Source: a virus
DNA: 64,000 bases
Strand: one strand, 5' to 3'
IMG/VR virus record: IMGVR_UViG_3300013099_000021
Span: 1-64,000 of that record
In this document: piece after piece, positions 6,143 to 37,379 of the stretch
How the letters are laid out: each line of letters opens with the position of its first letter
Numbering within the stretch: position 1 is the first letter of the stretch
Notes under the pieces: generated by a model
The model's database searches: none
What the model was told of the DNA's origin: nothing
What the model saw: only the letters and a program-made list of their open reading frames with translations
Program-made: the position numbers and the translations under genes

Positions 6143-6298
6143 ATGGATAAGGATAAAATAAAGAAGCTCGTCAATGAGGAAGGTTTAACCATAACTGACC
6201 TTATTGACGTTGTGATAGAGTTAAATGGCATCATCGGAGTGGGCTTAATTAGTCTCGGAGATGGGCTACAAAAATACACACACAATAAAATCAAGTAA
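6143..6298 (+). CDS. Small hypothetical protein (51 residues)
   Basis: ATG at 6143 gives MDKDKIKKLVNEEGLTITDL and ends KYTHNKIK. Mostly helical. It fits neatly between two genes on the same strand, which supports it despite its size. No recognised family. Confidence 0.5.
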   Translation: MDKDKIKKLVNEEGLTITDLIDVVIELNGIIGVGLISLGDGLQKYTHNKIK

Positions 6299-6316
6299 TC
6301 ATTAAATTCAAACGCT

Positions 6317-6490
6317 ATGAACAATGTAGATTTAAAAGTTAACGGAAACATTATGACAATCACAGTAGACCTGTCGAAAGACTTCGGCCCCTCTGCCTCC
6401 GGCAAAACAATTCAGATAGCCTCAACGCTTGGTAACAAGCCTGTGGGCGATGGTATTGCATTTGGACTGAACGTGTACAAGAAGCGGTAA
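6317..6490 (+). CDS. Small conserved phage-type protein (57 residues)
   Basis: MNNVDLKVNGNIMTITVDL then GPSASGKTIQIAST and a terminal GLNVYKKR. The pattern of a short beta strand, SASGKT, ST.GN and a final GLN.Y is one I recall from many small phage proteins of unknown function. SASGKT is not a full Walker A loop, so no nucleotide binding is claimed. The leader ATTCAAACGCT is A-rich. Confidence 0.6.
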   Translation: MNNVDLKVNGNIMTITVDLSKDFGPSASGKTIQIASTLGNKPVGDGIAFGLNVYKKR

Positions 6491-9044: not shown

Positions 9045-9683
9045 CTACAACTTCAAATTATCAGCCGTAGGCTCTATCTTAGCATTAGAGGGATTGTAGC
9101 TGTTTGGGTAAGGGTTAGGCTCATTAAGCCTCTTCAGATCCATTCCCAGCCACATAATAGCCTCCTGTACCTTTGTAATGGCAAGCGACCTCTCCCTGGA
9201 ACCATGACACCCCTTTATGTTTTGCAGTTGAGCGTCCAGGCCAACACGGAGGAGTTTGTCTGCCTTGACATCTTTCCGGTGAGCTTCTTCTTGATCAATA
9301 ATCCTCTGATCCTCAAAATTGAAATGAAATGGCTCCTGGACCAGGGAATCGACAATGCTTGCAAACAAGAGATCCTTCTTCTGCTGAAATACAGGTAACT
9401 TGTCGAATGTAACGATACAAGGGTGTGTCTTAGCACCGGGATCTTTCACCTCTCCCCACTCCCAACCATCATCAAGTTTATCTTTCACCCAGTTATTGTG
9501 CTGCGCTTCATGCCCTGCTCTCGGATTTTCAAGCCTGAACTGAACACCTTTAATGGCTGAATCCTGTTGCCATTTAGGTGCCTCAAACCAATCTGATTGA
9601 CTGTCATCACCATTAGCCTCGCACCATGCCTTGTTAGCCTGGTGGCATACAATGGCCACGTAAATAATCATACTTTCATTCAT
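9045..9683 (-). CDS. RyR domain fused to an Acb2/Tad1-type hairpin domain; candidate anti-CBASS/anti-Thoeris sponge
   Basis: 212 residues from the ATG at 9683. Residues about 5-115 (HQANKAWCEANGDDSQ..W, GHEAQHNNWVKDK, DGWEWGEVKDPGAKTHPC, QQKKDLLF) are a RyR domain as seen in phage proteins. The C-terminal part, about 155-212, has SRERSLAITKVQEAIMWLG and then NPYPNSYNP...EPTADNLKL. The first of these matches the helical hairpin shared by the Acb2 and Tad1 sponges, which sequester CBASS cyclic oligonucleotides and Thoeris signals. The fusion is visible here; its activity is inferred. It has its own promoter and a leader hairpin. Confidence 0.7.
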   Translation of the reverse strand: MNESMIIYVAIVCHQANKAWCEANGDDSQSDWFEAPKWQQDSAIKGVQFRLENPRAGHEAQHNNWVKDKLDDGWEWGEVKDPGAKTHPCIVTFDKLPVFQQKKDLLFASIVDSLVQEPFHFNFEDQRIIDQEEAHRKDVKADKLLRVGLDAQLQNIKGCHGSRERSLAITKVQEAIMWLGMDLKRLNEPNPYPNSYNPSNAKIEPTADNLKL

Positions 9684-9704
9684 AATTTGATATTTAAGGT
9701 TTAT

Positions 9705-9740
9705 AAAAAAAGGGTAGTAAGCCATCTCAGCTAACTACCC
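9705..9740 (-). terminator. Intrinsic terminator or attenuator upstream of the RyR-Acb2 gene
   Basis: Minus strand: GGGTAGTTAGC (9740-9730), loop TGAGATG, GCTTACTACCC (9722-9712), then seven T. One T-T mismatch in the stem. It ends the recombination operon, but it also lies downstream of the promoter at 9771-9802, so transcripts from that promoter must pass it. Confidence 0.8.
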
Positions 9741-11338: not shown

Positions 11339-11908
11339 TTATTTTACTTGTTTAAATTCGACTACCTCGAACACGCCAAACTCACCCTTATGTTCTGGCC
11401 TGTAACTTCCAATACCAAACATGGTCCCGGCAAACTCTAATATTGACTCAACGGTTTGTTTGGTGATCGTGTCATTCTTCACGTTAATAGTGAAGGAGAG
11501 GGATAAATCATTCCACCTGGGTCTGATCGCAATGATTCGTGCCTTGACATTCCGGTTTACGGCACTACGCTTGTCAATAGTGTCGAAATCCCTGACAATA
11601 ATCTCCTCCGGAGAGACTGTGAATAGACCGGCAACGATGTTTGTCATGGACTTTCGACCATTGCCGACCTTTGCTTTCACCTGTGTCCCTCCATTTATTA
11701 GGGATTGCTTGATGTGTTCAGAAGGAACGAAACATTCCCCCTTACTGTTGCGATAACAGTGGAACTCTGCACGAACGAGATCCTCTTGGTTTACATCATC
11801 TCTCTCAATGATTTTACCCCTGTTCTTTTCCCATTCTTCTAATTTCTGATCATCCATCCGATGTTGCATATACTTCTCGGTGTGGATCTTTACTCTAAAT
11901 TGTTTCAT
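11339..11908 (-). CDS. Uncharacterised phage protein with GIGxxRP...GxFG motif
   Basis: 189 residues from the ATG at 11908 after the A-rich AAAATTCAAAGCT; a TTG at 11932 would add eight residues. Key segments: FVPSEHIKQSLINGG (about 61-75), IRPRWNDLSLSFTI (about 126-139), and GIGSYRPEHKGEFGVFEV near the C-terminus. I recall a widespread virus family with RPRF...GIGDWRP...GRF but no assigned function; the Gly-rich end resembles RAMP-type nucleic-acid binders, which is only a hint. It is the first gene after the pentamer array, whose transcript forms its leader, so it is a prime candidate partner of that array. Confidence 0.65.
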   Translation of the reverse strand: MKQFRVKIHTEKYMQHRMDDQKLEEWEKNRGKIIERDDVNQEDLVRAEFHCYRNSKGECFVPSEHIKQSLINGGTQVKAKVGNGRKSMTNIVAGLFTVSPEEIIVRDFDTIDKRSAVNRNVKARIIAIRPRWNDLSLSFTINVKNDTITKQTVESILEFAGTMFGIGSYRPEHKGEFGVFEVVEFKQVK

Positions 11909-11928: not shown

Positions 11929-12295
11929 ACAAAAAATTACTGAACGAAACTAAACTCTACTTGACCTCACAAAACATCACATAACTAAACTTCAAAATAC
12001 TGCACCTAACTCGACTTTACTTTACCTTGCGTTACTAAACATCACATCACACAACAGTACCAAACTTTAAAATACTATACATAACAGGACCCCACTTTAC
12101 AACACAAAACCAAACATCAAAATACTTGACTTCACAACACTTCACAGAACCCAACTTTACATAACATAACAACAAATTACTTTACAAAACTCAACTCAAC
12201 GGCACATAACGTGACACTACCTCACTATACTTTAAAATACTATACCGCACAAGACAATACCCTACCCCACATAACGTCACATGACCCTACCTCAA
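11929..12295. repeat. Phased pentanucleotide array: (ACNNN) x about 73, AA punctuation every about 60 nt
   Basis: On the plus strand AC recurs at every fifth base from 11929 to 12290 with no phase slip. About 66 of 73 slots are AC, one is GC (12029), and the others are AA at 11934, 11994, 12069, 12119, 12174, 12234 and 12294. The three bases between are highly variable, so it is not a simple tandem repeat. In the operon transcript it reads GUNNN. It starts at the stop codon of the polymerase-like gene (12292) and ends about 20 nt before the next ATG. It has no codon structure. Function unknown; protein wrapping or loading is a hypothesis. Confidence 0.95.
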
Positions 12296-12870
12296 TAGTT
12301 TAATTGGTTGTGTTTCGATGTCCAGTTTCGGTCCCCTGGTGGATTCCAGGGTATTCCCAAAAAGTCAAAGAACGCATATTCAGTATCAAAGACCGGGGGC
12401 TTTGTTTCCTTCCCCTTAAACTCCTTTTTCAGGGTCCATTTAGATGCTTTTTTGTCACATTCAGCCTTACGCCTCAATCCCCACTCGGTACCGCACCATC
12501 CTAACCGGTTCCATGTAATTGCCAGTTTGATATGGCTGAAAGCAGAAGATCCTGTTCTGATTGCCAAAATTCGACCATAATCATGGCGCTGCGCTATATA
12601 AAGTTCCACCTGGATCTTGTCTTTAGGGTACTTAAACCGCTTTAGACGCTTACCATTGACAACCATCCCTGGATACTTTTCATGGAAGAGATTGTCCAGG
12701 CTGTTAAAAGCGCTCTCAGTGCAAACTATCTCAATATCGCCAACCTCCTTACATCCCCTGCGAACACTACCAGCTATCTCCCTGACATCTGTGTATGGTT
12801 CGATGAGGATAAGGAACCGTCTGGCTACATTGAGTGCCTTTTCTAATTTGATCTTTTCTCCGCTACTCAT
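12292..12870 (-). CDS. Family-X DNA polymerase-like nucleotidyltransferase
   Basis: 192 residues from ATG 12870, overlapping the upstream stop by 8 bp. IAGSVRRGCKEVGDIEIV (about 32-49) is the polymerase-beta type GS...G and acidic pair, here D-x-E. A third acidic residue is likely the E of IQVELYIAQ, followed by RTGSSAFSHI. Phage relatives are single-domain nucleotidyltransferases that may fill gaps or tail ends; the substrate is not evident. The gene's stop abuts the pentamer array. Confidence 0.75.
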   Translation of the reverse strand: MSSGEKIKLEKALNVARRFLILIEPYTDVREIAGSVRRGCKEVGDIEIVCTESAFNSLDNLFHEKYPGMVVNGKRLKRFKYPKDKIQVELYIAQRHDYGRILAIRTGSSAFSHIKLAITWNRLGWCGTEWGLRRKAECDKKASKWTLKKEFKGKETKPPVFDTEYAFFDFLGIPWNPPGDRNWTSKHNQLNY

Positions 12871-13546
12871 CTCTGAGCTTTTTCGCAAAGTACGTCTGTC
12901 CCTTTCCTGTGATCTTTGTTGTCCTGCTAGTGAAAGTTTGATCTGCTGCTCCAATGGTTCTCTCAATCACTTCAAATAAACCTTGCTGAACATAGTTCTG
13001 ATACGGTTCATTGCCTCTATTAAGGTACCCATTGTCCCGGAACCACTTAAATAACCTGTTCTGGCCTATCTCAAAACCGTCATCGCTCAAAATCTTTGCG
13101 AAGTGTCTTGTTAGAATAGAGTTATCACTTCCGGAAACAGCATCAGCAAAAACAACCTTTGATCTGTCATTTTCGATTTTCGCTTCAAGGGCAAGTCGCT
13201 TTTGATACTCCTCCTGCCAGTTCTGAACCAGTTTAAGAACTGTCTCTGGATTGGTGAAGTCAATAGCTTTCTGTTCCAGCTCCTCCCACCTACGGTTAAT
13301 CTTTATCCTTAACTCAACACTATACCCAGTCATCAAGTCAAATGTCTGTATCCGGCTTAGAAGAAATTGAGGCTGCTCTTTGTTCTGCTCGTTCCGATAA
13401 GAGGACCGCTCAAGTTTGGGCAGTCCTAATTTCTCGTAGTTAACATTCAGAGTTTCAATATCACGAAGAACGTGCTTGTGTTGCTTCCCTGTCAACTCCG
13501 CAATCTCACGGCTTGACATCGACTGCTTATTTGCTAATTCTTCCAT
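12863..13546 (-). CDS. Rha-family regulator with KilAC-like C-terminus
   Basis: 227 residues from ATG 13546 in a TAATG overlap. Residues about 8-95 (SSREIAELTGKQHKHVLRDI..., FLLSRIQTFDLMTGYSVELRIKI...) are the Rha domain. The C-terminal part (SDDGFEIGQNRLFKWFRDNGYL, ITGKGQTYFAKKL) is the KilAC antirepressor domain. Such proteins are DNA-binding regulators in phages. Its position inside the replication operon suggests timing control. Confidence 0.8.
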   Translation of the reverse strand: MEELANKQSMSSREIAELTGKQHKHVLRDIETLNVNYEKLGLPKLERSSYRNEQNKEQPQFLLSRIQTFDLMTGYSVELRIKINRRWEELEQKAIDFTNPETVLKLVQNWQEEYQKRLALEAKIENDRSKVVFADAVSGSDNSILTRHFAKILSDDGFEIGQNRLFKWFRDNGYLNRGNEPYQNYVQQGLFEVIERTIGAADQTFTSRTTKITGKGQTYFAKKLRDE

Positions 13547-23935: not shown

Positions 23936-26900
23936 TTAATTACTGGACTTCTTTGCGTCCTTAATATCTTTATTCCCAGACGCCTCCTTGAAAAAGTCCC
24001 TTGGCTTCCCTGTCTCTTCCACTGGAGCGTCCAATGCTTTTCTTATTTCGTGTGCCGTTTTCAAAAGTATTGCTCCCTGCTCTGCCTTTAGATCATAGTC
24101 GGACTGTACACCCTCACTAAAATAGCCATCCAGGGCAATCCTGAAAGCTACATAATGACCCTCTGCCTTCAGGTGTGGGAATTTATTGTACAAAGTCATA
24201 AGATGCTGAACGTGCTTGGACCCGTAGATCTGAGGATCCTTGTAGATACCCAAATCATCCCACTGCAAAGCTACACTTCTGTTTGGATCATCCAGGATAG
24301 GGAGATACTCAAACGCTCCTATCGGATACTCAGCATAGGTAGAGAACTGTGAAAATAGGAAGTAATCCAACATTCTTGGATCGATGAAGGGATTGTCCTC
24401 CTGGTTCCAGGTGATAGCATCGGACCCCTCCATTAACAGCCTGGAAAACTTACTCGCATTGTGCGTTTCCCGGGATGCGATAGCCAGGTCTTTTTCCGAT
24501 GGAGGAATAATATGCTTCTGCCTGAACATATCATAGTTGGCCACCACTCCTATCCCTCCGGAGAACCCACTGGTAATCCCACTTATACTGTAAGGATTCA
24601 TGCTTGATATGAATGAGAACCACCACCCATCACTGAAAGCATCCTTATCATTATATAGAGCCATATCCATGCCCCGTTGAGCAACAGATCCTATTCTGCC
24701 CAGTTCAAACGGCTTAGGTATAATAATCCACCCACGGCCAAAAGGATTGGGGAACCGGTAGAACCCATCTCTCAGGTAGTTTGGATGGCTCAGATATTCC
24801 TCCCTCTCATCATCCGTGATATATCCAAGTGACATATACAGACTGTTGAGGATCGATGGTAGCATACTAAATGCAGCTAAGTGAACTGCGAATCGTGCTG
24901 GATTCTTCCTCGCTGTCCTGGCAATCTTTTCCATGCCCCTCACTGCTGCGCTGGTGAAGATCAACACCTTGTTTATCTCCTTGGCTACCGTCCCGGCTGC
25001 TGCAAAATCCATCAGATCTCTGGCTTGATATGCCGCCCGGACTGCTGCTTCCTGGTGAGTTAATCCATACTTCTTTATACCCTCATTGTATGATGCCATG
25101 TATTGAATCCTACGGGTAGGGCGCTCACTCATGTTAAACTGTCTGTTAACAAACTGAAACCCTTTCCCAACCATGTTATACTTGGTGTTGGGATTCCCTT
25201 TCTTCTTGGCTTTCATCATATATTGATGATGTGGCAGCTTACTCTCCTTTCTTTGAGATCCAATGATCTTTTTTCTCGGCACAAAACCAAACTGTCCACC
25301 ACCATACCTCTCAAAGGCATCGTCAGCCTTTTTGTTTGGTAATATATACCATGGTCGTGCATACCTTTTAGCCGTCCCTACCACTAAGAATTGCCCAAGG
25401 TCACGTATCATGTTCCTGTTGACAAACCTGATGGATTTGGTAATAGCCCTCCGGAGTAGCTGCGGAAAGAAAGAGGCAATCTTCATTCCCAAGCTGTCAC
25501 TGACAGGCAACAGGTCTTTCCATGTCTCATAAAGGTACTTATCACCGAACACCAGGTATTTTTTCTTGCCTTTCTCATAAAAGGATATGTTATATCCACT
25601 TGGTTCTTTGTAATCCTGAACCCATGCGATCTCGCCATGCTTAACCACATCCCCTTCGTGCATATTCCTACCCACAGCGCCCCTTTTAAACATATCAGCA
25701 AAAGTTTGCACTGAATAGTTCATGTCACCAACATCAACCAGGTTCATCCACGACTTTATCATGCTGGACACTGGGTTGTCTATTGGCCTGTCACTACCTT
25801 TGAATGGGAATACAACTTCTCTCGGCTGCAGCCCTGTTCCTGTTGGCCTCTGCTGTTCTTCAAATTCAAGATCCTTGCCCTCAACCATATCTTTTGGCTC
25901 AATAGCCTGCAGACGGTTCATGGCAACATAGTCCAGGTTCTCGTTCTGAATCTGATCTTTGGTTTCTTTGGATATAAGACCTGCCTGATAAGCGTATTCG
26001 GACCATTGCTTGCTGATCTCTCTGTATCTCCTCCAAAACTCCTTGATACCATCATAAAGCTCTGGGTCAGTGATCTTCATCGCCTCAAATTCCTTTACGG
26101 CTGCAACGGCCACATCGTAATCCCTCTGTCCAGACTGTGCAACACCAGTGGAAACAACGTCTGTAAAGTCATAACGACCTGGCGCTACTATTTCACCTTT
26201 CTTGTTATAGGTTGGTTCGTTGCTGATCCATACATCGTCAGGATCCAAGACACCCTCATCCATCCTTGTTATGATGTCATTGATCTTCCCGGCCCACATC
26301 TCAATGATATGAGGGTGTTTAGCCAGTATCTTCAAAGGTGGCAGTCTGTCTGTTGTAGTTTCCAAATCATGTCTGAGAAGCCTTGCCTGGTACTTCTTTG
26401 GTAATTCAACAGCTCTCTCCGAAATACCAACCGCCATAGTTATATCTGTATTCTTTTCCCATTGAGCATTACTTGTTCCTGGAATAGCTTCATACATCCA
26501 GTCGAAAGTCATAGCCTGTCCGGTTTTTGGATCAAGTACCCTGCTTTGATCAAAATCCATAACACCTTTGTCCATTAGGTTCTGAAGTTTCACATCGAGT
26601 CCCAGGTGGTTCCTGACAACGATCTCGAAGTTCTGTAATGGGCTTAGTTGGTTAGGATCGTCAATGTCCGTAATCCCTTGCTGCTTTGCAGCGTATTTGA
26701 AAGCCTCAACAAGTGGATCTATGAAATACCATATCCTCCTACCCATCTTATCAAAGATGGTTGTTTGGAACTGGCCCTCCTTATTCTCCCTGTTCCAGGC
26801 TATACCCTTCCTTCCTACCTTGGGATCCAGACGAGCATTGGTGAGTGTCTGGTCAAGTGCAGAGGATCCGTATAACGTCCTGACATCTTCACTGAATTGT

Positions 26901-29900
26901 TCCAATCCTTCCCAAACCTTTGTGTGAGGCTGCATCTGAGATCTGAACCATTCATAGGTTGTTGGAAATCGGCTCTCCGCTTCTGATGGGTTCACTACCC
27001 AGGCCCGGATAAACTCAGCCATACCCTCAGCCATCCTGTACCTTTCCGGATTCTTATGTCCCCGGGGAGGCTTGCTGCCATACTCCCACAGCTTTGATAA
27101 CTCCGCTTTCAACTCATTGTATATAGGATACGCTTTTGGACCCAGTAACCCGTACTTGTCATCTAAGTAGTGACCTATCTCATGCGCTGCGACATCCTCA
27201 TCACCAAAATGCTTTATACCCAACTTACCAATGGTGGGATCATAGGATCCTACAGCTCTCCTTGCTGATGGCCTGCGAGTGTATTGGATCTTTTTACCAA
27301 GAGCTTTGGATATATCATCCTGGATCTCCCATAGCTTCTTCGGGGAAAAGCCTGGCTTGGGTGGTTTTGGGCTTGGAACAACCCTGTCTTTGTGGGGCGT
27401 ATAAATCATGCCCTTCGTGTCATTATGGGGGTTCGATAACCCTCCCCTGTCTATTGGACCGGTTGATTCTCCTGCTCCATATTCATCCATGGTAGAGGCA
27501 GCATCGGTTTGATCATTCCCTTTCTGGACCTGCTTATGGTCAACCTCCAACATGGTCTTAAATCGCTCATTAAGGACAGTTAGCAGTGGTTGTAGGCTCT
27601 CCTCTGGGAACCTGGCCACCATCCTGTCGTTGATCTGCTCGAACATACCATTTCTGACAATAGACTTTATGACCTCATTGGAGTAATACTTAGAACCCCT
27701 CTGTGTTGAGGCTGGTACTTTCAGTTCGTACATCTGCGGGGAGTCGTAATCCATCTTTTTGATTATGATGTCCCTTGAAACATCCTCCACAAAGGTTTTT
27801 GGTGCTAGTGCCTTGATGATGTTTGCAGCTTTATGGATCGGCATCCTGGCTGTATTGCTTGTCTCATTGATCCAGTTCTCAGGCATGAGGATCCCTTTCA
27901 CTATACTGCCATCCTCCATGGAAAACTTTACCAGCCGGCCTTTTTTATACTTGTTCATGCCCTGCAAAATATTTCCGGTAACAAGATACCTGGTTTCCCT
28001 GGTCCTGCTTTTCTTGATGTTATCCCAGTCCTCCATGATCTCATTGGACTGAGCATTGGAAATGTGATAGCTGTTCCCAATGATTGCGTCCAGGTGATTG
28101 TACTTGCTGACGGGGATCCGGAACATCTTCCGGCTATCTGTGGTAGCAAACTTTAACATCACATTACTGGGCACCCAGGGATTAGCTTTATTCATGTTCA
28201 CATCGAAGGAAACAAACACTCCTTTGTTCATGCGGACAAGGCCCAGTTGCTCATCATCGGTGAACGGAACCTCTAATCCTTTCCCGGGTTCGAAGAAATC
28301 AAAATACTTATTAAACTTGGCTTTGTTCAACTGGGACACGACTCTGAGGTTATTGATGCGATCACTCTCCCTCTCATCTATCTCGTTCTTTTTTAGCTCA
28401 TACTCACGAACCTTATCTTCCGGTGACAAGCCGTCTTTATCTTCGATCTTCTGCCTCCACAACGCTCTCGCCTCTTCTGAGCTGCGCTGTACATTTCGTA
28501 TCTGAGTGTCAAGCTGAGACTCTATGCCCTTCTCCATGGCGGCCCTTAAATCCTCCACATGGTTGTCGGGAACTTTTTCAAGCTGTTCTTCCAGTTGCGC
28601 TTTGGTAAACGGCTTCCTGGTAACATTCACCTCAGCCTCATTCAATACGGTATCGTCACCAAAGTATGAATACCCTCCATTCCCCTCGATCTCAACGGTG
28701 CTTTTCTTGAATACTGCGTCAAGCTCCTCATTGGTAACCATCAGGTCATTGGTGCCTGTGCTGTTCCGATATTCAATATCGTTCCTGTACCGTTCAGCAA
28801 CCTCACGATAAAATTCCTCCTGCATCCTGGATGGAAGGATCTGTATCTTACCTGTAACCCTATGGGCTGCGTTCTGCTTATTGGGATCCTTGCCCCCAAT
28901 GTTTAAAGGATCACCAATTCGCCTGTTAATGTCTGGGTTCTCCTTCAGGTACTCAAACACCACATCATCACCATACTTGTTAAGGAAGTCATCAACATCA
29001 GCAAGGCTTTTGCTATGCTTTTGGTTCCCAGAGGTGTTGGCATCAAGTGATTTCAGCTTCTTAGCGTTCATCATAAACATTCGTGACTCAGCCGGGAGTG
29101 TTGAGGTGACCATGTTATATATTGGCTTATTCAACTGGTCTGCCCGATAGATCCTACCAAACAACTGGACCACTACATTTATATCCAAGTCATTTTGCAA
29201 GGTCCACATAGTCCTTTGGCTGACATCAAGGAAGTCTGGCGATGAGTGCATCGATATACCCGTTGATCCCGCCCTATTCACAATGGCTGCTACACCCGGG
29301 TTGTTGTTAAATCTGGCTACCGCCTTGATCTTATCACCCCTGTCATTGGTTACAAATTCCCCCCTGCTTCCATCTTCGTTAAGTTTGAACATAGTGTGGC
29401 GGCCTGTGATCTCAACAGCCTCGAATCCTGCATCAGTAATCCCTTTTCGTAATATGTCGATAGGGGAGATGGGGATCCCAGTGGTCATCCGTTGGATCTT
29501 CTCCATCATACTGTAATACCTGGACCTTCCGGTTGCCGTTAGATCCTCGGGGTTCAGGTCTGCCTTAACATCATTACCCTGGGCATCCGTTTCCGTGTAC
29601 TTCATCACGGTTTCCATCCCACGTTTGAGGACATGGGAGAAGTCCAATGGGATAGTTTCCCCCTTCTTCAGTTCTAAGTTCTCTACCATTTTCTGAAACA
29701 TAGCCTCCATGGTACTCTTCAGGGCTATGACAGGCTTGCGTCCTGCTTTCAGATCCTCAACGATAAGAGGCACTGCCTCCTTAACCTTGATGGATAGTAA
29801 TAGCTGGTCAATAATATTCCAAACACGGCTGAAGTATGGTGCGTTATTTACCCCTGCCTGAGAGGTGCCTTTCCTCATCCCAACTTGTTTGCCCTCACGC

Positions 29901-32900
29901 TTAATATCCTCGTTCATTCCTTCCAGGACCGGATTGATAAAATCCCTCTGAAAGTCCACGATCTCTTGTAAGACCCCGGTAATGTTATCGAAGTCCTCAA
30001 CCATCCTCTTCCCCAGCTCGGGGTTATAGGTTCTTTGTGAAGGATCTGTATCACCGATCACAACATAATTCATTTCGGCATCCATCTTGAACCCGATCTT
30101 GGCGAACTGTCCTGACTCAGCTAATTGATGTGTTATGATTTCCTGCAGGGCAGGTCCTCCCGCCAGGATCCCATCAATCATTTCCTCCATGGTCATGTTT
30201 GCTTCCTGCAATACAGTTTTCATAGAGTAGAGCGGCATATTGTCTGGGCGCTTGGCGTAAGTGGCCGAAAGGAATAATCCTCCCTGGGTTCCCAATAACC
30301 AATCCTTAAAGAAATCACCAGTATTGCTCATGCCACTAGCCTCATGGCTCTCATCCATAACGAATACCACATCGTTATCACGGATCAGTTTATTCAGGAA
30401 TGATCTCTTCTCTGAATCCCGGCCCTCGGTGGTGAACTGAGAATAGGTAGTCATTATCATCTGAGTTCCCTCTGGTAGCTTATGTGTACCTGGTCTTTTC
30501 TCAGTTCCAATAATCCTATTGTTCTCCTGTGGATCCACCTCCCACTTCACATTCCCATCCTTATCAAAGACCCTCGCTTTCTGTCCTGAACTTGCAAACT
30601 GCTTGTTCATTATGAAGGGTTTGTAGTTTGGGGATCCAATATTCACCATGTCCCTGTAAATATCAGTGAACAGGTCAGCGCCTTTGGTAATGAATATGGG
30701 TAGCTTGCCGTTTTCAATGGCATACCGGATCACTCCTGCAGCTATACGGCCTTTCCCTGTGCCGGTCTGGTGCCCAATGATCATGGCGTTCTTACCCTCA
30801 ATATTATAGATAGCCTGACCAATACCATCAACCTGTTCAGCAAACATACCGGTGCCCTTCATCTCATCCAGGCTATTATAATTCAGCTTTTCACGAACAT
30901 ATTCATCGATGTCACCTATCTCATCACTCAACTGCATTAAGGCATCTTGCATCTCGGATGCTATGGAAGCAGGAACAATAAAGTTCCCGGATCCCAAATC
31001 GCTTAATGGTCTGTGAGATGTTACATCATCAGCACTAATATCACTTATGCCAAGCTCTCGCTTAGTACGCTGATCAGGCTTTCCAATGTTGTTTGTTGGT
31101 AGATCGAGCGCACTTCTTGTTGGCCGAATTTCTCCAAACCGTCCGACCTCTCCCCTTCGTCCCGTCTGATCAGTTCCCCCATCTGATTTATGTATTGTGG
31201 ACTTGACATTATCTGTTCCGCTTGCCCTTGTACGTCCGGCTCCGGGATCAGGTCGAGAAGTGAATGGATTAGTGACTCTCTCGTTGTCGGCTGCTCCTTG
31301 TTCAGCAGGGAGATCAGTTTCTTCGGAAACCGTAGGGTCAACTCCTGAACGCTCTGTGGCTGGATTTTGGTCGGTAGCTCTACCGCCCACAAGCGAATCA
31401 GTTCCTCGCATGGCATCCACTTTTCGTTGTAGGCTATTGTTTTCATTGGCTTTAGTTTTTAATACGGTAATACGTTCACGAACATCGGTCCAGTTCTCCA
31501 CTGGATTAAAGGCTTCTGATTGTAATGGAGCTGCACCTTTCTTCTCAGTCTTTCTTCCGTTGACCAGGATAACTTTAACAGGATAGCTTGCGCCCATGGT
31601 CTTGTACAGATCCCCTGGGAGTTGAATCACATCCTCAACATAGTAGTTCTTGTATAACCAGTTGAAAAACTGAAGATCGTTTTTATCGCCAGGCTTTCCG
31701 CTTCCTACCATCTGGCCGTTCGCTTTCCACTTAATATGGCCTCCGGTAATGATGGCTGCTTTTCCTGTGTTGCTCAGTGACTTTAAAGCATGGGCAACCG
31801 GCACATATTCACCATGTAGCCAGTATCCTTCAAAATCTTCAGTGGTCCCGCCAAAAGGAGGATTGATATGTACTGCATCTACGGTCTGGACATCTAATTG
31901 GTCCTGTATTCCATGAGTGCTGTCCTTGTTAAATACCCTATACCCTTGTTCGATAAGGTTTTGATACCTACCCTCATCGATCTCATTGGCCCGGACACCC
32001 CTACGGTCTGCACTGATCAACAATGCCCCGTTCCCTGCACTGGGATCCATGACATTATCGACACTTTTGGCATTGGTGTACTCTCCCATCAGGAAAGCCA
32101 GTGGCACAGGTGTGCTGTACTGTTGCTTCTCCTTAATGGCACTGGTCCGGTATGATAAGGTTGGAAATGTAGAGTACAATCCCTGGATCCTTGAAAACTG
32201 ATCAGCTTCATTTATGGTGTTGTCCATAGCTATGCTACGGGCAACTTCCACCATGGCCAGCTCTGCCCTCTCACGGATGGCAGTCTTGTTGGTGACACCC
32301 CACTTGGCAGCTATCTTGATTAATTCTCTGAAATCAGCAATAGGCTCACCTTTCCAAATACGGTTCTTCACCTCCCAGGTAAATGCTCTCTGACGGATAA
32401 GTTTATGCTTTGCCTCTGTCTCGCCAAGGGACCTGGTGAAAAAAGCTATTGAATCGTCAACCTTTTTCTGTGAAGAATCCTGGTGACCTTTATCCAAGGC
32501 CCGGGCATGGGATCCTATCCCGTACATAGCCATGATTGGAGATGATGGATAGAACTGGTCAGCCAAATACTTTATTTCCTGTATCCCTTTTCCTGTAAAT
32601 CCTAACTGAGCAAGTATCTTGTGGTGTTCATTGGTCAGTTTAACAAGCCGGTTCAGATCCTCTTTCCTTGCGTTTTTCAATACATAAGGGGTGAGGGGAT
32701 CCCCACGCTTAACATTACTCTCCAGAAGGTCCATTACATTTTCCAGTGTATAGTCCTCCTCAACGGGGATCGGAGCGAATATAATCTTCCCGGTTTGAAT
32801 ATCATCTTGCCGCTTTTCAAACTCGGCCACCCTTCGCTTGCTTGCGAGATCCTGCTCCCATGCCAACTCAGAACCATCATAAGTTCTTGGCTCCCTATAC

Positions 32901-35900
32901 ATCTTCTTTTCAAGCTGCTCGGCTTTGGCCATGTCACCTATAGACTTGTAGATGTCAATGATCTTGGTCAGCTCGGTCCTATATTCTTTGTTGTCGAACG
33001 GCTCAACCTCAGTGGCTTTCCCTTTTGCAATCAAATCCCTGAACTTGTCAACGATGACAGCTTTCTTGCTCTCTCCTTTGATTGATACAGGATCCTCTAT
33101 GATGGCTACGGTCAGCTTCTCAAACTCTGCAGGAGCTTCACCAAACAATCCTCCCAGATCTTTCACCCTCTGATCCCTGGGGTCCGTCCAATCCTCAACC
33201 CGGACTACCTTAACCTCCTTATTCAATTCAGGAATAAAGAACACCTTACCCACAAGATCTGAATACTCCGACTGTGTAGGGATGGTTGTCTGTCCTGCAG
33301 CTTCGTTCCCGGCAGTAGACTTTGACTGTTCAAGGTTATTAATCTCTCTGTTAATGGCTTCGATCTGAGCATCAAATGGCTGCAACGCTTTCTTGATATT
33401 CTCGTCTGATGGATCAAATGTTTCATCAAACATACCTGGTGCGCCAGTCTCTACTTTGGTGTCACCGAACAGCCCTTTGCGACCAGTAAGTTCGGAATAC
33501 TTCTTCTGCTTCTGCTTCTGGATGGTTTGGATCTGATTACGCTTATCCGTGATCTGCGCATCGATTTCGTTGATTACCCTTTCTCTTTCCCTTTTATTTT
33601 CTCCGGGTTTTGTGACCTTAGCTTCGCCAGTGTCAAGGCGTTCTTCACCAGGCTCGGTGACGGCTGCTTCTTCTGTTTGCTTGATTTCATCTTCGATATT
33701 TTTTAGGTAACGACTTTTTTCCTCCTCCGTCATAAGACCCATCTTAATGGCCTCATCGACATTTTCAGGACTCAGCTCACCAAACTGGTTGGTGAACTCG
33801 TCCAGTTTAGCGTCAGCAATAAGGTTGTCTATTTCCTCAACTGAAACGCTGGTAGCAGGGTGCCTCTTTGTCTTTTTTATTTCGATAGCCCCAACTGCCA
33901 ATGAATTTTCCAGTGCATCAAGTAGCTTATTCGCTGCAACGGTTTTCTTTCCTTCCTCAATATTTTTGATGCCCGAAGCGATTTGACTGGCCTTTAAGTC
34001 CACATCATAATCCATTAAAAATCCGGGATACGTGATGACCTTATTCACAAAATCAATAAACCCCTGATCCTCATATTCGTTGAGTGCAAGGTGCGCATCG
34101 ATCTCTTCCTTGGGAGTGCGCATCTCCGTTTGTTTGATCTTCTTGCCATTCTCATCCTTAACAACCATCTGCCCATCTACCATGCCGACAATGTATCCAA
34201 GATCCGCAACAGCCCTGCTTATCTGTTGCATCAGGTCCCCCTTAATCTGAGTGTGAGTGGCTGGCGTTTTGTTCCATTGGGCAACTCGAATTACCAGTGT
34301 GTCATGTTTCCTTTCCCTGGCTTTGGGATCCTCTACTGGTGGAGGTGCTGGTGGTTCTACCGGCTCCTCTGTTGGTGGGGTGGGTTCTTCAAATACTTCC
34401 CCGGCCAGGACATTTGTAATATGATCCTCAATGGAGATGCCTTTATCCATTTCTCCTTTCTGAACAGTAGAAATATCCTGCCACACATACCACATAGCTT
34501 TGTCAAACTCCTCATCGGTGATGGTGGGTGCAAGCTCACGGATCTTCTTCTCAATCGTGGGTTGGATCTTCTGTGCAAATTCGTTTACCTCGTCCTGCCA
34601 CTGATCAACTGCTGCCTGCTCATCCTTCTCAATCTTCGCAATCTGATCTTCCAATTTCTTACGATCTTTCTTCTGGTCCAGGCTCAACCTACCCTTAAAT
34701 TCTTTTTTGAGGCGTTCTTCGAGATCTGCTTTATCCTTGGTGATCTCCTCCACCTCTGCGGCAACGGCATCCTCCAAGACAACGAACCTCTTATTAACAT
34801 CGCCCAACTTACCAGATAGGATCAAAGCTGGATCCCCAAGGCCCTGGATGGGTTCACCCGTAGGTTCTTCCTCCACAACCTTCTCCACAACAACTGCCCC
34901 TGCCGTACCAGGTGGCTCCTCTGGTGGCTTCTTATCATCCCTGATCTTTCGTGCAAGCTCCATGGCTTTGTACACATTAAGGTCAAGATCCGGCTGTGGT
35001 AATCGTTCGATGGGGTGGATAGACAGGGCCTCTGCCAATTCCTCAATGGAGGCGTAGTCCTGTCCTCCATATCTGATCATGCCTTCCTTCACTGGTGGCA
35101 TGGCTTTTCTTTCCTCAATAGCTGTTAAGGATTCCTCTTTTATTGCCTCGGCTTCAGCCCTTAATATTGCATAATCTTCTGGGGTGTTGATTTTATGCCG
35201 GCCCGCTCCAAATAAGCCTATTGAATTATCAACGGTAAGATGATCTTCGGCATTTTTGACGCTGCCAGTTAGACCCTCTTTCTCCATTTTGTCAATAGCT
35301 TTAACGACACGATCAGCCACCTCCGTTCTTTCCTGAAGCTGATATTGGTCCATGAAGGGAGTTTCAACAAACCTCTCAGGTCTTTTCTCAACTACTTCTG
35401 GCTTTGGTGGTACTCCTTCATCAGGCTTTCCCTCGACTCCTTCGGTAATTGTGCTAACTTTAATCTTGTCTGTAAGTTCAACCTCTTCGGTGACGAACTC
35501 TCCTTTTTCGGCTTGCTCATTGATCCTATTATTTAGCTGTGTGATCTCAAATTCCAAGACAGACATCATCTCATCGATCTGCTCCGTAGTCTGCTTACGC
35601 TTGGGATCGGACTTCAGTGCTGCCAGCTTCTTATATTCTCCATAAAGGTTGTCGGCTGCCATCTTCAGCCGGTCATTCATTACAGGCTCTCCCCTGTCAA
35701 TAGCATCAAGGGTTTCATCGGTTGCGTCCTCAATGGTAATCCCAGGTGTATCTGGAATATTGTACTTCTCCTGCTCCTCCTTAATCCGCTTGTCATCAAA
35801 GAATTTCCGTTCAGACTTCACCTTCTCCACATACTCAGGATCCAGTTTAAGACCGGCTGCTGTTCGTTTTGGTGGTTTTGGTGGTTCCGTTGGTGTGGGT

Positions 35901-37369
35901 GGTTCCGTTGGTGGTCCTGTTGGTGCTTCTTCCCCTGGCTTTGGTTTTGGTACTGCCTTATCGATACCCTTGATAACTGCTCCACCGGCTGTAAAGTATG
36001 CTCCACCGGCTGCTCCTGCCCAGAACGCATCCCAGGCTCCATCCATAGGCTCTGCATCCGGTCTTACGCCAGTGTATTTGTCTGTAAGGTTTTCGCCAAC
36101 TGCGTTCACAAGTTCCTCGACTCCTTCCTGTACTGGGGCGGTCCATAAACCAACCTTCATATACATGGACTTTATCCATCCCCTAAGACCGGTCTTAACC
36201 AGTTCTTGTGTGGCTTCCTTCCCAATCTTCTTGATAGACCCTTTGATGAGGTAACCCAGTCCGGCTGTGCCCATTTCTGTACCAGCCTCAATAGTTCCGG
36301 TAATGGCTCCATTTAGTAAGGCCATTCCTTCTGGTGTTCCTTCTTCTATCAGACGCTCATACTTTTCGCCACCGGTCATCAATCCAATGGTAGCTAATCC
36401 GGCAGGTCCTCCAAAGGCAGCCATCATACTCATGGGTAAGCTCTCGGCTCCTTGCAGCATTGCTGCTCCAACAGCTTCCATTTTATCTCCGGCCTTCCAC
36501 AGCTCAGTAATTGTTTTATCGTACCGTTCGCTACGCTCCAATAACTTCTTCTCCCTTTCTTCCCAGTTCTTGTAATAATCTGTTTTGGTGTCGATAAGCT
36601 CCTTGACATCATTGGACGCTTTTAAAGCCTGTACTGGGGAGAATTTGCCAAATCCAACCTTAGCTGCAAACTCCCCGGCCTTATCCGCTTTAGCTGGATT
36701 GACCCCTAGTTTTTTCATTTCCCAAGCTAATAACCTACCAGGTGCTTCAAGTAGTTTTTCAGCCATCTTGGATCCTTTTTTTGACCATCCGGGCAGCTTG
36801 GCCATTCCAGCCAATACACGCTCCCCGACATCTCCCATATAAGATCCGGAGTCCGGCTGCCCTTCTTCACTTGGCAGGGAGGCCAGTAAGCCTTCTGGTT
36901 CTCCATCAGGCATAAGAAGTTTGGCTACATCATTGATGTCTAAATTCTTGTCGGGAACGGGTTCTTCTTCGGCTGCAGCCTCTTCCTCTCGCTGCGCCTC
37001 TGTCTTGGGCTTCTGATTCTTGGGCCAGTCCATAGGAGGGACTGGATCCTCTGGTAGATAATCTTCAAAGGATGGGATGGGGAAAGGATCTATCTCTGAT
37101 GGTGGTGGTGGGAATTTCGATGTGAGGTATTTTTCCCTGGCTGAAGCAACCTGGGTGGGGTCAGCCCCTCCCTCCATTTCAATAGGAACCAGGTAATCAT
37201 CAAAATACTTATTCAGCCTTTCAGCTTTTTCCTCGTCAGAAGATTGGATGTAAGAGGGGTCATTGAGCATCCTATTCTCGTAGAACTGCGCTTTCTCACG
37301 TTCCGACAAACCCCTTCTTTTTGCAGTAGGGTTGTATTGAGGTTCCTGTAAGGTTTCTTTCTTTCCCAT
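23936..37369 (-). CDS. Giant polyvalent protein: DNA methylase + helicase + metalloprotease + LPD38-like domain
   Basis: 4477 residues. N-terminal Pro-rich region and a Gly/Ala-rich hydrophobic zone at about 300-480 that may insert in membrane. About 1700-1990: adenine-type methylase with QYSTPVPLAF, DPSAGNGALL (about 1770) and NPPF (about 1835). About 2130-2950: superfamily-2 helicase (strawberry-notch/DarB type) with GTGKGR (about 2200), DESH (about 2334) and QLFGRIYRADQ (about 2731). HEIGH zinc-protease site near 3395. About 3960-4170: LPD38-like region. Such polyvalent proteins are packaged in the virion and injected to protect incoming DNA. It lies after the internal virion proteins, in keeping with that. 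Confidence 0.85.
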   Translation of the reverse strand: MGKKETLQEPQYNPTAKRRGLSEREKAQFYENRMLNDPSYIQSSDEEKAERLNKYFDDYLVPIEMEGGADPTQVASAREKYLTSKFPPPPSEIDPFPIPSFEDYLPEDPVPPMDWPKNQKPKTEAQREEEAAAEEEPVPDKNLDINDVAKLLMPDGEPEGLLASLPSEEGQPDSGSYMGDVGERVLAGMAKLPGWSKKGSKMAEKLLEAPGRLLAWEMKKLGVNPAKADKAGEFAAKVGFGKFSPVQALKASNDVKELIDTKTDYYKNWEEREKKLLERSERYDKTITELWKAGDKMEAVGAAMLQGAESLPMSMMAAFGGPAGLATIGLMTGGEKYERLIEEGTPEGMALLNGAITGTIEAGTEMGTAGLGYLIKGSIKKIGKEATQELVKTGLRGWIKSMYMKVGLWTAPVQEGVEELVNAVGENLTDKYTGVRPDAEPMDGAWDAFWAGAAGGAYFTAGGAVIKGIDKAVPKPKPGEEAPTGPPTEPPTPTEPPKPPKRTAAGLKLDPEYVEKVKSERKFFDDKRIKEEQEKYNIPDTPGITIEDATDETLDAIDRGEPVMNDRLKMAADNLYGEYKKLAALKSDPKRKQTTEQIDEMMSVLEFEITQLNNRINEQAEKGEFVTEEVELTDKIKVSTITEGVEGKPDEGVPPKPEVVEKRPERFVETPFMDQYQLQERTEVADRVVKAIDKMEKEGLTGSVKNAEDHLTVDNSIGLFGAGRHKINTPEDYAILRAEAEAIKEESLTAIEERKAMPPVKEGMIRYGGQDYASIEELAEALSIHPIERLPQPDLDLNVYKAMELARKIRDDKKPPEEPPGTAGAVVVEKVVEEEPTGEPIQGLGDPALILSGKLGDVNKRFVVLEDAVAAEVEEITKDKADLEERLKKEFKGRLSLDQKKDRKKLEDQIAKIEKDEQAAVDQWQDEVNEFAQKIQPTIEKKIRELAPTITDEEFDKAMWYVWQDISTVQKGEMDKGISIEDHITNVLAGEVFEEPTPPTEEPVEPPAPPPVEDPKARERKHDTLVIRVAQWNKTPATHTQIKGDLMQQISRAVADLGYIVGMVDGQMVVKDENGKKIKQTEMRTPKEEIDAHLALNEYEDQGFIDFVNKVITYPGFLMDYDVDLKASQIASGIKNIEEGKKTVAANKLLDALENSLAVGAIEIKKTKRHPATSVSVEEIDNLIADAKLDEFTNQFGELSPENVDEAIKMGLMTEEEKSRYLKNIEDEIKQTEEAAVTEPGEERLDTGEAKVTKPGENKRERERVINEIDAQITDKRNQIQTIQKQKQKKYSELTGRKGLFGDTKVETGAPGMFDETFDPSDENIKKALQPFDAQIEAINREINNLEQSKSTAGNEAAGQTTIPTQSEYSDLVGKVFFIPELNKEVKVVRVEDWTDPRDQRVKDLGGLFGEAPAEFEKLTVAIIEDPVSIKGESKKAVIVDKFRDLIAKGKATEVEPFDNKEYRTELTKIIDIYKSIGDMAKAEQLEKKMYREPRTYDGSELAWEQDLASKRRVAEFEKRQDDIQTGKIIFAPIPVEEDYTLENVMDLLESNVKRGDPLTPYVLKNARKEDLNRLVKLTNEHHKILAQLGFTGKGIQEIKYLADQFYPSSPIMAMYGIGSHARALDKGHQDSSQKKVDDSIAFFTRSLGETEAKHKLIRQRAFTWEVKNRIWKGEPIADFRELIKIAAKWGVTNKTAIRERAELAMVEVARSIAMDNTINEADQFSRIQGLYSTFPTLSYRTSAIKEKQQYSTPVPLAFLMGEYTNAKSVDNVMDPSAGNGALLISADRRGVRANEIDEGRYQNLIEQGYRVFNKDSTHGIQDQLDVQTVDAVHINPPFGGTTEDFEGYWLHGEYVPVAHALKSLSNTGKAAIITGGHIKWKANGQMVGSGKPGDKNDLQFFNWLYKNYYVEDVIQLPGDLYKTMGASYPVKVILVNGRKTEKKGAAPLQSEAFNPVENWTDVRERITVLKTKANENNSLQRKVDAMRGTDSLVGGRATDQNPATERSGVDPTVSEETDLPAEQGAADNERVTNPFTSRPDPGAGRTRASGTDNVKSTIHKSDGGTDQTGRRGEVGRFGEIRPTRSALDLPTNNIGKPDQRTKRELGISDISADDVTSHRPLSDLGSGNFIVPASIASEMQDALMQLSDEIGDIDEYVREKLNYNSLDEMKGTGMFAEQVDGIGQAIYNIEGKNAMIIGHQTGTGKGRIAAGVIRYAIENGKLPIFITKGADLFTDIYRDMVNIGSPNYKPFIMNKQFASSGQKARVFDKDGNVKWEVDPQENNRIIGTEKRPGTHKLPEGTQMIMTTYSQFTTEGRDSEKRSFLNKLIRDNDVVFVMDESHEASGMSNTGDFFKDWLLGTQGGLFLSATYAKRPDNMPLYSMKTVLQEANMTMEEMIDGILAGGPALQEIITHQLAESGQFAKIGFKMDAEMNYVVIGDTDPSQRTYNPELGKRMVEDFDNITGVLQEIVDFQRDFINPVLEGMNEDIKREGKQVGMRKGTSQAGVNNAPYFSRVWNIIDQLLLSIKVKEAVPLIVEDLKAGRKPVIALKSTMEAMFQKMVENLELKKGETIPLDFSHVLKRGMETVMKYTETDAQGNDVKADLNPEDLTATGRSRYYSMMEKIQRMTTGIPISPIDILRKGITDAGFEAVEITGRHTMFKLNEDGSRGEFVTNDRGDKIKAVARFNNNPGVAAIVNRAGSTGISMHSSPDFLDVSQRTMWTLQNDLDINVVVQLFGRIYRADQLNKPIYNMVTSTLPAESRMFMMNAKKLKSLDANTSGNQKHSKSLADVDDFLNKYGDDVVFEYLKENPDINRRIGDPLNIGGKDPNKQNAAHRVTGKIQILPSRMQEEFYREVAERYRNDIEYRNSTGTNDLMVTNEELDAVFKKSTVEIEGNGGYSYFGDDTVLNEAEVNVTRKPFTKAQLEEQLEKVPDNHVEDLRAAMEKGIESQLDTQIRNVQRSSEEARALWRQKIEDKDGLSPEDKVREYELKKNEIDERESDRINNLRVVSQLNKAKFNKYFDFFEPGKGLEVPFTDDEQLGLVRMNKGVFVSFDVNMNKANPWVPSNVMLKFATTDSRKMFRIPVSKYNHLDAIIGNSYHISNAQSNEIMEDWDNIKKSRTRETRYLVTGNILQGMNKYKKGRLVKFSMEDGSIVKGILMPENWINETSNTARMPIHKAANIIKALAPKTFVEDVSRDIIIKKMDYDSPQMYELKVPASTQRGSKYYSNEVIKSIVRNGMFEQINDRMVARFPEESLQPLLTVLNERFKTMLEVDHKQVQKGNDQTDAASTMDEYGAGESTGPIDRGGLSNPHNDTKGMIYTPHKDRVVPSPKPPKPGFSPKKLWEIQDDISKALGKKIQYTRRPSARRAVGSYDPTIGKLGIKHFGDEDVAAHEIGHYLDDKYGLLGPKAYPIYNELKAELSKLWEYGSKPPRGHKNPERYRMAEGMAEFIRAWVVNPSEAESRFPTTYEWFRSQMQPHTKVWEGLEQFSEDVRTLYGSSALDQTLTNARLDPKVGRKGIAWNRENKEGQFQTTIFDKMGRRIWYFIDPLVEAFKYAAKQQGITDIDDPNQLSPLQNFEIVVRNHLGLDVKLQNLMDKGVMDFDQSRVLDPKTGQAMTFDWMYEAIPGTSNAQWEKNTDITMAVGISERAVELPKKYQARLLRHDLETTTDRLPPLKILAKHPHIIEMWAGKINDIITRMDEGVLDPDDVWISNEPTYNKKGEIVAPGRYDFTDVVSTGVAQSGQRDYDVAVAAVKEFEAMKITDPELYDGIKEFWRRYREISKQWSEYAYQAGLISKETKDQIQNENLDYVAMNRLQAIEPKDMVEGKDLEFEEQQRPTGTGLQPREVVFPFKGSDRPIDNPVSSMIKSWMNLVDVGDMNYSVQTFADMFKRGAVGRNMHEGDVVKHGEIAWVQDYKEPSGYNISFYEKGKKKYLVFGDKYLYETWKDLLPVSDSLGMKIASFFPQLLRRAITKSIRFVNRNMIRDLGQFLVVGTAKRYARPWYILPNKKADDAFERYGGGQFGFVPRKKIIGSQRKESKLPHHQYMMKAKKKGNPNTKYNMVGKGFQFVNRQFNMSERPTRRIQYMASYNEGIKKYGLTHQEAAVRAAYQARDLMDFAAAGTVAKEINKVLIFTSAAVRGMEKIARTARKNPARFAVHLAAFSMLPSILNSLYMSLGYITDDEREEYLSHPNYLRDGFYRFPNPFGRGWIIIPKPFELGRIGSVAQRGMDMALYNDKDAFSDGWWFSFISSMNPYSISGITSGFSGGIGVVANYDMFRQKHIIPPSEKDLAIASRETHNASKFSRLLMEGSDAITWNQEDNPFIDPRMLDYFLFSQFSTYAEYPIGAFEYLPILDDPNRSVALQWDDLGIYKDPQIYGSKHVQHLMTLYNKFPHLKAEGHYVAFRIALDGYFSEGVQSDYDLKAEQGAILLKTAHEIRKALDAPVEETGKPRDFFKEASGNKDIKDAKKSSN

Positions 37370-37379
37370 GGATTAGAAA

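What the first reader, a model, noticed from the sequence alone, without database searches (positions are those of the whole stretch)
11929..12295. Phased ACNNN pentamer array, about 73 units without indels
AC occurs at every fifth base across about 365 bp (about 66 of 73 slots), while the intervening NNN vary freely. Only two of five positions and the phase are under selection. A duplicated microsatellite would keep NNN similar, so this is not a slippage product. It lies in the recombination operon, as the leader of an unknown gene and recT. In the transcript it is GUNNN. TRAP protein recognises NAG triplets at similar 4-5 nt spacing, and DnaA-trio elements are 3-nt phased ssDNA tracks. By analogy this may be a binding track with one subunit per 5 nt. 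I know of no such element in phages.
Basis: seen in the sequence. Interest (0 to 1): 0.93.

Follow-up and report, generated by a model that had tools for sequence, protein, structure and literature searches.

The report
VIPR guide-RNA array in a phage
The odd five-base rhythm in this phage is a string of six guide RNAs for a small CRISPR-ancestor-like protein (a VIPR system, first described in a 2026 preprint), in a form where the fixed motif is reduced to two bases, and at least one guide spells out a gene of a closely related rival phage.

Summary
AC stands at every fifth base in 66 of 73 slots (11929-12293), while 1000 dinucleotide shuffles reach at most 27. It is a VIPR array (preprint PMC13142463). 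The neighbouring gene (11339-11908, minus) encodes a Vipr/RAMP protein: its family profile hits 'SUSP1 Vipr protein' (PDB 36pp, E 2e-26), and its AlphaFold model matches Cas7-type CRISPR subunits.

Read on the vipr strand, the array is six guides of 9-14 units, (NNNGU)n, each closed by an in-register AUUUU/AAUUU pentamer. The published motif is GGY/NN. Here, and in a supported clade of related loci, it has decayed to NGU/NN.

Guide 12239-12293 decodes as codons interleaved with GU (E-RHDYGRILAI). Its gapped 18-base pattern has one match in all of IMG/VR: the homologous polX-like gene of a syntenic, vipr-less relative. Two of the three N's match targets (N2 10/11, N3 9/11) and the third does not (4/11). 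The published 1-nt-skip rule therefore holds, and the skipped base is the codon wobble. A second phage shows the same geometry.

'NNN vary freely' is wrong: two of three are the message. Transcription, RNP assembly and interference are inferred here.

The parts
11339..11908 (-). vipr gene (189 aa, ATG at 11908; the listed ORF starts at an upstream TTG, 11932). RAMP/Cas7-fold guide-RNA-binding protein, phrog_4652
   Evidence: Profile A1 hits PDB 36pp 'SUSP1 Vipr protein' at 1.8e-26. AlphaFold2 pLDDT 93.5; Foldseek best hits are type VII Cas7 and Csm backbone subunits. phrog_4652 2.2e-15.
11929..12293 (-). vrRNA array; guide strand is the minus strand (units NNNGU), read as ACNNN on plus
   Evidence: In all clade loci with an array, it lies on the strand that makes (NNNGU)n co-directional with vipr.
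12239..12293 (-). guide 6 (first in transcript), 11 units, decodes E RHDYGRILAI; targets the polX-like gene of rival phages
   Evidence: Unique gapped match in IMG/VR; N1/N2/N3 matches 4, 10, 9 of 11.
12179..12233 (-). guide 5, 11 units
   Evidence: Block between U-rich separators.
12124..12173 (-). guide 4, 10 units
   Evidence: target scan gave only chance-like hits in unrelated phages.
12074..12118 (-). guide 3, 9 units
11999..12068 (-). guide 2, 14 units counting the GCGTT unit at 12029
   Evidence: GC units occur in other clade arrays.
11939..11993 (-). guide 1 (last in transcript), 11 units
12234..12238 (-). in-register separator, AUUUU in the transcript; same at 12119-12123, 12069-12073 and 11994-11998; AAUUU at 12174-12178 and 11934-11938
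   Evidence: L139 has the same architecture independently, with separators AAAAA/AAAAT/AAATA 9-12 units apart on the AC strand.
12292..12966 (-). polX-like gene (DNA polymerase beta palm/thumb-like; likely ATG near 12870), own homolog of the gene that guide 6 targets
   Evidence: Pfam thumb 3.7e-5, palm 0.0036, both below the curated cut-off. Homologs L143 78%, L144 74%.
12559..12591 (-). own copy of the targeted stretch (QRHDYGRILAI); Arg CGA and Leu TTG where rivals have AGG and CTN

Best explanation
A two-component VIPR cassette, vipr plus a fused array of six vrRNAs. The array is transcribed on the minus strand, probably with polX upstream and vipr downstream (inferred). Vipr subunits bind the RNA at one per NNNGU unit, gripping the GU (inferred from the published system and the RAMP fold). 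In each unit two bases (complements of N3 and N2) pair with target DNA and the third (complement of N1) is a non-read slot. The target is therefore read as NNx NNx NNx with the skipped base on the codon wobble (supported here by two target cases). A U-rich pentamer ends each guide, acting as a minimal tail or cleavage site (inferred). Guide 6 is a sense copy of a conserved codon block (DYGRILAI) in the polX-like gene of closely related phages that lack VIPR. Binding there would block expression of that gene in a co-infecting rival or resident prophage (inferred). The clade differs from published GGY/NN systems in having lost the first G of the motif and in its fused array.
For: Protein: PDB 36pp SUSP1 Vipr profile hit 1.8e-26, Cas7/Csm fold hits E 2e-6. 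Association: of 120 IMG/VR stretches pulled by array pattern alone, 51 of 71 with degenerate units carry a vipr homolog in the stored DNA versus 4 of 49 microsatellite-like ones (Fisher 8.5e-13; median distance 154 bp). Consensus: on the vipr strand the ACCNN arrays are GGT/NN, and a SUSP1-like phage (VpaE1) shows GGY/NN beside its vipr. The NGU/NN loci form a clade (support 0.996) next to GGT/NN. Target: the only IMG/VR match to guide 6's 18-base gapped pattern is the syntenic polX homolog in L143. The first 8 units match 16/16 read bases in L143, L144 and L189, with N1 only 2, 3 and 4 of 8. The N2N3/skip-1 register stands out against 11 alternatives (19/22 versus at most 16/22; 1 of 2000 shuffles). 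Second case: L135's guide versus its neighbouring exonuclease-like gene, 19/22. Published rule and function: PMC13142463.
Against: Only one of the window's six guides has an identified target. In both clade cases the matched sequence is a homolog rather than a proven natural target, so low N1 matching is partly confounded with wobble divergence. Two post hoc cases have N1 mismatches that are all synonymous, which could mean N1 mirrors an unsampled target; however, over 25 guides N1 shows no coding consistency (p 0.72). There is no transcript evidence, and no clear promoter or terminator was found. The structured 3' tail of published vrRNAs is absent.
Confidence: 0.9

Rival explanations
1. Same VIPR cassette, but in this clade all three variable bases are read, so each unit carries a whole target codon (a contiguous 3-nt code with GU spacers).
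For: N1 is as variable as N2 and N3. In guide 6 and the L135 guide the N1 differences at matched codons are synonymous.
Against: N1 matches three rivals at only 2, 3 and 4 of 8 while N2N3 match 16/16. No stop depletion attributable to N1 over 25 guides. A contiguous-sequence search of phage records found nothing.
Confidence: 0.08
2. A protein-binding track without guide function: an RNA leader or ssDNA element that only needs GU every 5 nt, bound by a TRAP-like ring or recombinase.
For: Constant 2-nt spacing and variable NNN; location in a recombination operon.
Against: The gene beside it is a Vipr RAMP. NN content matches a homologous gene of a relative. Guides differ while scaffolds persist in other loci.
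Confidence: 0.02
3. Degenerate microsatellite or assembly artefact.
For: Perfect period without indels.
Against: NNN shows no lag identity. The same element recurs beside vipr in independent contigs from many metagenomes, including L139 with 80 units.
Confidence: 0.005

Closest known systems
VIPR systems (Vipr + vrRNA; preprint PMC13142463; PDB 36pp), type II SUSP1 clade
   Same: Phage-encoded Vipr RAMP of about 190 aa, tandem pentanucleotide guide RNA next to it, guides of 9-14 units, two read bases per unit with a 1-nt skip on the codon wobble, target in a competing phage.
   Different: Motif NGU/NN instead of GGY/NN; guides fused in register with only a U-rich pentamer between them instead of a structured tail; no conserved accessory (vap) gene in the clade. 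The preprint mentions 'a related consensus' and other array layouts in supplements that I could not read, so this clade may be among them.
CRISPR class 1 (type I/III/VII) Cas7 backbone and crRNA
   Same: RAMP fold; periodic protein on guide RNA.
   Different: 5-nt not 6-nt period, interrupted code, no Cas1/Cas2 or repeat-spacer CRISPR array, single protein.
TRAP (trp RNA-binding attenuation protein) NAG repeats
   Same: Short RNA motif at about 5-nt spacing (from my own knowledge).
   Different: Unrelated protein; spacer bases carry information here.
TIGR-Tas (PMC12045711, title and abstract only)
   Same: Phage-borne array of short guides.
   Different: Different protein; not tested further.

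Membership tests
VIPR | Vipr-family RAMP protein | tested here: met
   Profile hit to PDB 36pp SUSP1 Vipr, 1.8e-26; Cas7/Csm fold.
VIPR | Adjacent noncoding tandem pentanucleotide array, GGY/NN or related consensus | tested here: met
   Array about 20 bp from the vipr start codon. GGY is relaxed to NGU, so met only in the 'related consensus' sense.
VIPR | 9-16 units per guide | tested here: met
   11, 14, 9, 10, 11, 11 units.
VIPR | Noncontiguous code with 1-nt skip in target, skip on codon wobble | tested here: met
   Guide 6 and L135 guide; one of six window guides resolved.
VIPR | Targets competing mobile elements | tested here: met
   The guide 6 match lies in close relatives G001/G002 in which no Vipr homolog was found.
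VIPR | Structured invariable 3' tail on the vrRNA | tested here: not met
   Only AUUUU/AAUUU pentamers between guides; no Rfam match. The published tail is described for the SUSP1 clade; other layouts exist among types, so this feature does not define the whole family.
VIPR | vap accessory gene | tested here: inconclusive
VIPR | vrRNA transcribed and bound by Vipr | not testable with these tools
   Needs RNA-seq and pull-down.
CRISPR class 1 | CRISPR repeat-spacer array with Cas1/Cas2 and several cas genes | tested here: not met
   Neighbour genes are RecT, polX-like, an antirepressor and others; no cas family among the ten neighbours scanned; no PADLOC hit for the vipr product.
Microsatellite | Similar neighbouring units | tested here: not met
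   NNN identity at lag 1 is 0.296 versus 0.299 shuffled.
TRAP binding site | TRAP ring protein and NAG triplets | tested here: not met
   Units are NGU, and the partner protein is a RAMP.

The most novel reading that the evidence does not exclude
In this clade the loss of the first G of GGY turned the skipped slot into a readable one, giving a contiguous three-base code: guide RNAs that spell target codons separated by GU, each guide ended by a U-rich pentamer.
Probability: 0.08. Interest if true: 0.85.

Novelty: new variant of a known kind. Interest (0 to 1): 0.62.

Why it matters
VIPR was reported only in 2026 as the proposed ancestor of CRISPR guide proteins, with a GGY/NN motif. This clade shows that the fixed part of the motif can shrink to two bases without changing which bases are read. 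It is a natural experiment on what a RAMP subunit must recognise, testable against the solved SUSP1 Vipr structure. The fused, U-punctuated array is the most compact multi-guide layout I saw. The identified target gives a concrete rival pair of related phages, with a hint that the carrier recoded its own gene to avoid itself.

Tried and rejected
Contiguous NNN code: concatenated NNN searched against fetched loci and phage records, no match above shuffles, and a coding-consistency test of N1 was negative. Codon-phased open peptides first seemed to prove a 3-nt code; they do not, since many frames are open. Targets for guides 1-5: no excess in 2.2 Mb of fetched phage DNA scanned on both strands. 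Guide 4's 16-base pattern gave 9 IMG/VR hits, none in loci with detectable homology to the window phage, so taken as chance. L141's first guide in 295 genomes of its order: none. Single-sequence homology search for the window vipr found nothing; the three-sequence alignment worked. Structured RNA around the arrays: no relevant Rfam match; a tmRNA and a tRNA elsewhere in two loci. Promoter and terminator scan: promoter-like hits only slightly above shuffles, some inside the array, and no terminator. I first took the AC strand as the RNA; the orientation table and VpaE1 show the guide strand is the GU strand. Self-avoidance by first-base recoding of Arg and Leu codons is suggestive only (4 of 23 R/L columns differ, among them both in the target core; hypergeometric p about 0.024).

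Full report
1. The observation. In the plus strand AC recurs at every fifth base from 11929 to 12293, in 66 of 73 slots without indels. A thousand dinucleotide-preserving shuffles of the stretch never exceed 27 in-phase copies of the best dinucleotide, and the autocorrelation is about 0.53 at lags 5, 10, 15 and 20. The other three bases are mutually independent and no more alike between neighbours than after shuffling. Six of the seven exceptions are AAAAT or AAATT pentamers in register, so the array is punctuated.

2. It is a recurrent element with a partner gene. Of the 71 with degenerate units, 51 carry a homolog of the gene next to the window array (11339-11908) in the stored DNA, against 4 of 49 microsatellite-like stretches (Fisher p 8.5e-13; median distance 154 bp). 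The family is phrog_4652, of unknown function, with no Pfam, NCBIfam or PADLOC match.

3. The protein. A profile of 38 members (A1) finds one strong match in the PDB: 36pp, 'SUSP1 Vipr protein', E 1.8e-26. The AlphaFold2 model (pLDDT 93.5) matches type VII and type III (Csm) CRISPR backbone subunits in Foldseek. The invariant glycines sit in AGxxxGxGxxRPxxxGxxGRF, which fits the RAMP glycine-rich loop. A 2026 preprint (PMC13142463) describes VIPR systems: Vipr RAMP proteins with vrRNAs of 9-16 pentanucleotide units alternating GGY and NN, read with a one-nucleotide skip in the target and used between competing phages.

4. Strand and motif. In the loci whose motif is ACCNN on one strand, 14 of 15 have the array on the strand opposite to vipr, so that on the vipr strand it reads GGT/NN. 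The SUSP1-like phage VpaE1 has GGY/NN arrays on the vipr strand beside its vipr gene. In the window and its relatives the same orientation gives NGU/NN: the first G of GGY has become free. These loci form a clade with 0.996 support beside a GGT/NN sequence. One relative, L141, lies in a genome labelled Draconibacterium (Bacteroidota), the only host hint for the clade. Other loci in the collection use GAC/NN, CAC/NN, GTC/NN, GTT/NN and ACA/NN-like motifs. I cannot tell which of these the preprint already lists in its supplement.

5. Array layout. Read in transcript direction the window has six guides of 11, 11, 10, 9, 14 and 11 units, each closed by AUUUU or AAUUU. L139, whose Vipr is 49% identical, has an 80-unit array with the same layout: separators AAAAA/AAAAT/AAATA on the AC strand, 9-12 units apart. 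Others of the clade, such as L141, L131 and L137, have separate arrays with longer spacers. No neighbouring gene is conserved across the 13 clade loci, so vipr plus array is the moving unit.

6. A target. The guide at 12239-12293 reads, in transcript sense, GAG-GU-AGG-GU-CAU-GU-GAC-GU-UAU-GU-GGG-GU-AGG-GU-AUU-GU-CUU-GU-GCG-GU-AUA-GU: codons for E-RHDYGRILAI with GU between them. The adjacent polX-like protein contains QRHDYGRILAI. A gapped pattern of the two read bases of nine units (18 bases, wobble free) has exactly one match in IMG/VR: the homologous polX-like gene in L143, a phage syntenic with the window phage and 65-88% identical in most of its large proteins. In L143 and L144 polX and recT have no vipr between them, and no Vipr homolog was found in the rival sequences examined. 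Guide 4's 16-base pattern, used as a yardstick, gave nine hits, all in loci without detectable homology to the window phage. At most about one hit would therefore be expected anywhere for 18 bases.

7. Which bases are read. Against L143 the guide matches 4, 10 and 9 of 11 at N1, N2 and N3. Its first eight units match all 16 N2N3 bases in L143, L144 and L189, but only 2, 3 and 4 of 8 at N1. Among twelve register/skip models only N2N3 with a one-base skip stands out, and 1 of 2000 unit shuffles reaches it. The phage behind L135 repeats this: its guide matches its neighbouring exonuclease-like gene (IERFDYDQGIA versus VNRFHYDQGIA) at 19 of 22 read bases and 2 of 11 N1. In both the skipped base is the codon wobble, as published. 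L038, with another motif (ACR/NN), matches a neighbouring baseplate-type gene at 37 of 48 read bases and 6 of 24 N1, again with the skip on the wobble.

8. Caveats. These matches are to homologs, and wobble bases diverge fastest, so low N1 matching is partly confounded. In the two clade cases the N1 differences are synonymous, which left open a contiguous three-base code. A test over 25 guides found no sign that N1 is coding-consistent. The carrier's own polX has Arg CGA and Leu TTG where the rivals have AGG and CTN, both at read positions. This would spare it, but such changes occur at 4 of 23 comparable codons. Transcription, processing at the U-rich pentamers, RNP assembly and repression are inferred from the preprint, not shown here.

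9. Verdict. Membership in VIPR is well supported. The NGU/NN motif and the fused, U-punctuated array make it a new variant of a known kind, unless the preprint's supplement already covers it.

Noticed in passing
L038:6535-6654: 24-unit ACR/NN array in a 14.4 kb phage contig with no detected Vipr homolog; its read bases match the neighbouring baseplate-type gene (6267-6338) at 37/48, with the skip on the wobble. Either the vipr gene lies elsewhere or a different protein uses the array.
   Followed up: partly
L141:10590-10902: Three arrays separated by nearly identical ~50 nt sequences containing a tRNA T-arm-like hairpin (antisense of CCCTGGTTCGATTCCGGGG), possibly a processing signal.
   Followed up: no
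L018 (arrays on minus strand), L063: GAC/NN arrays separated by a perfectly conserved ~37 bp sequence (GTGTTTATCACTCAGACAAGGAGGCTGTTTTTCCTGAC) while the units differ completely: CRISPR-like repeat-and-variable anatomy.
   Followed up: partly
loci: Array motifs by Vipr lineage: GGT, GTC, GTT, GAC, CAC, AAC, ACA and NGT plus NN. The CAC loci and the GAC loci carry the AC strand co-directional with vipr, which may be a different register from GGY/NN.
   Followed up: partly
L137:10570-10864: Two arrays whose guides share seven consecutive read dinucleotides and differ there only at N1, as if two versions of one target were addressed.
   Followed up: no
window 9045-9725 (-): Protein with RyR-domain and Acb2/Tad1 hairpin-domain matches (Pfam, the latter just below cut-off): possible counter-defence sponge next to recT.
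   Followed up: no
L142:7012-7398: Vipr-like match (33% identity over query residues 57-189) at the end of a contig labelled Diapherotrites archaeon.
   Followed up: no
window 23939-37372 (-): A single open frame of about 4,470 codons, with homologs in the rival phages.
   Followed up: no
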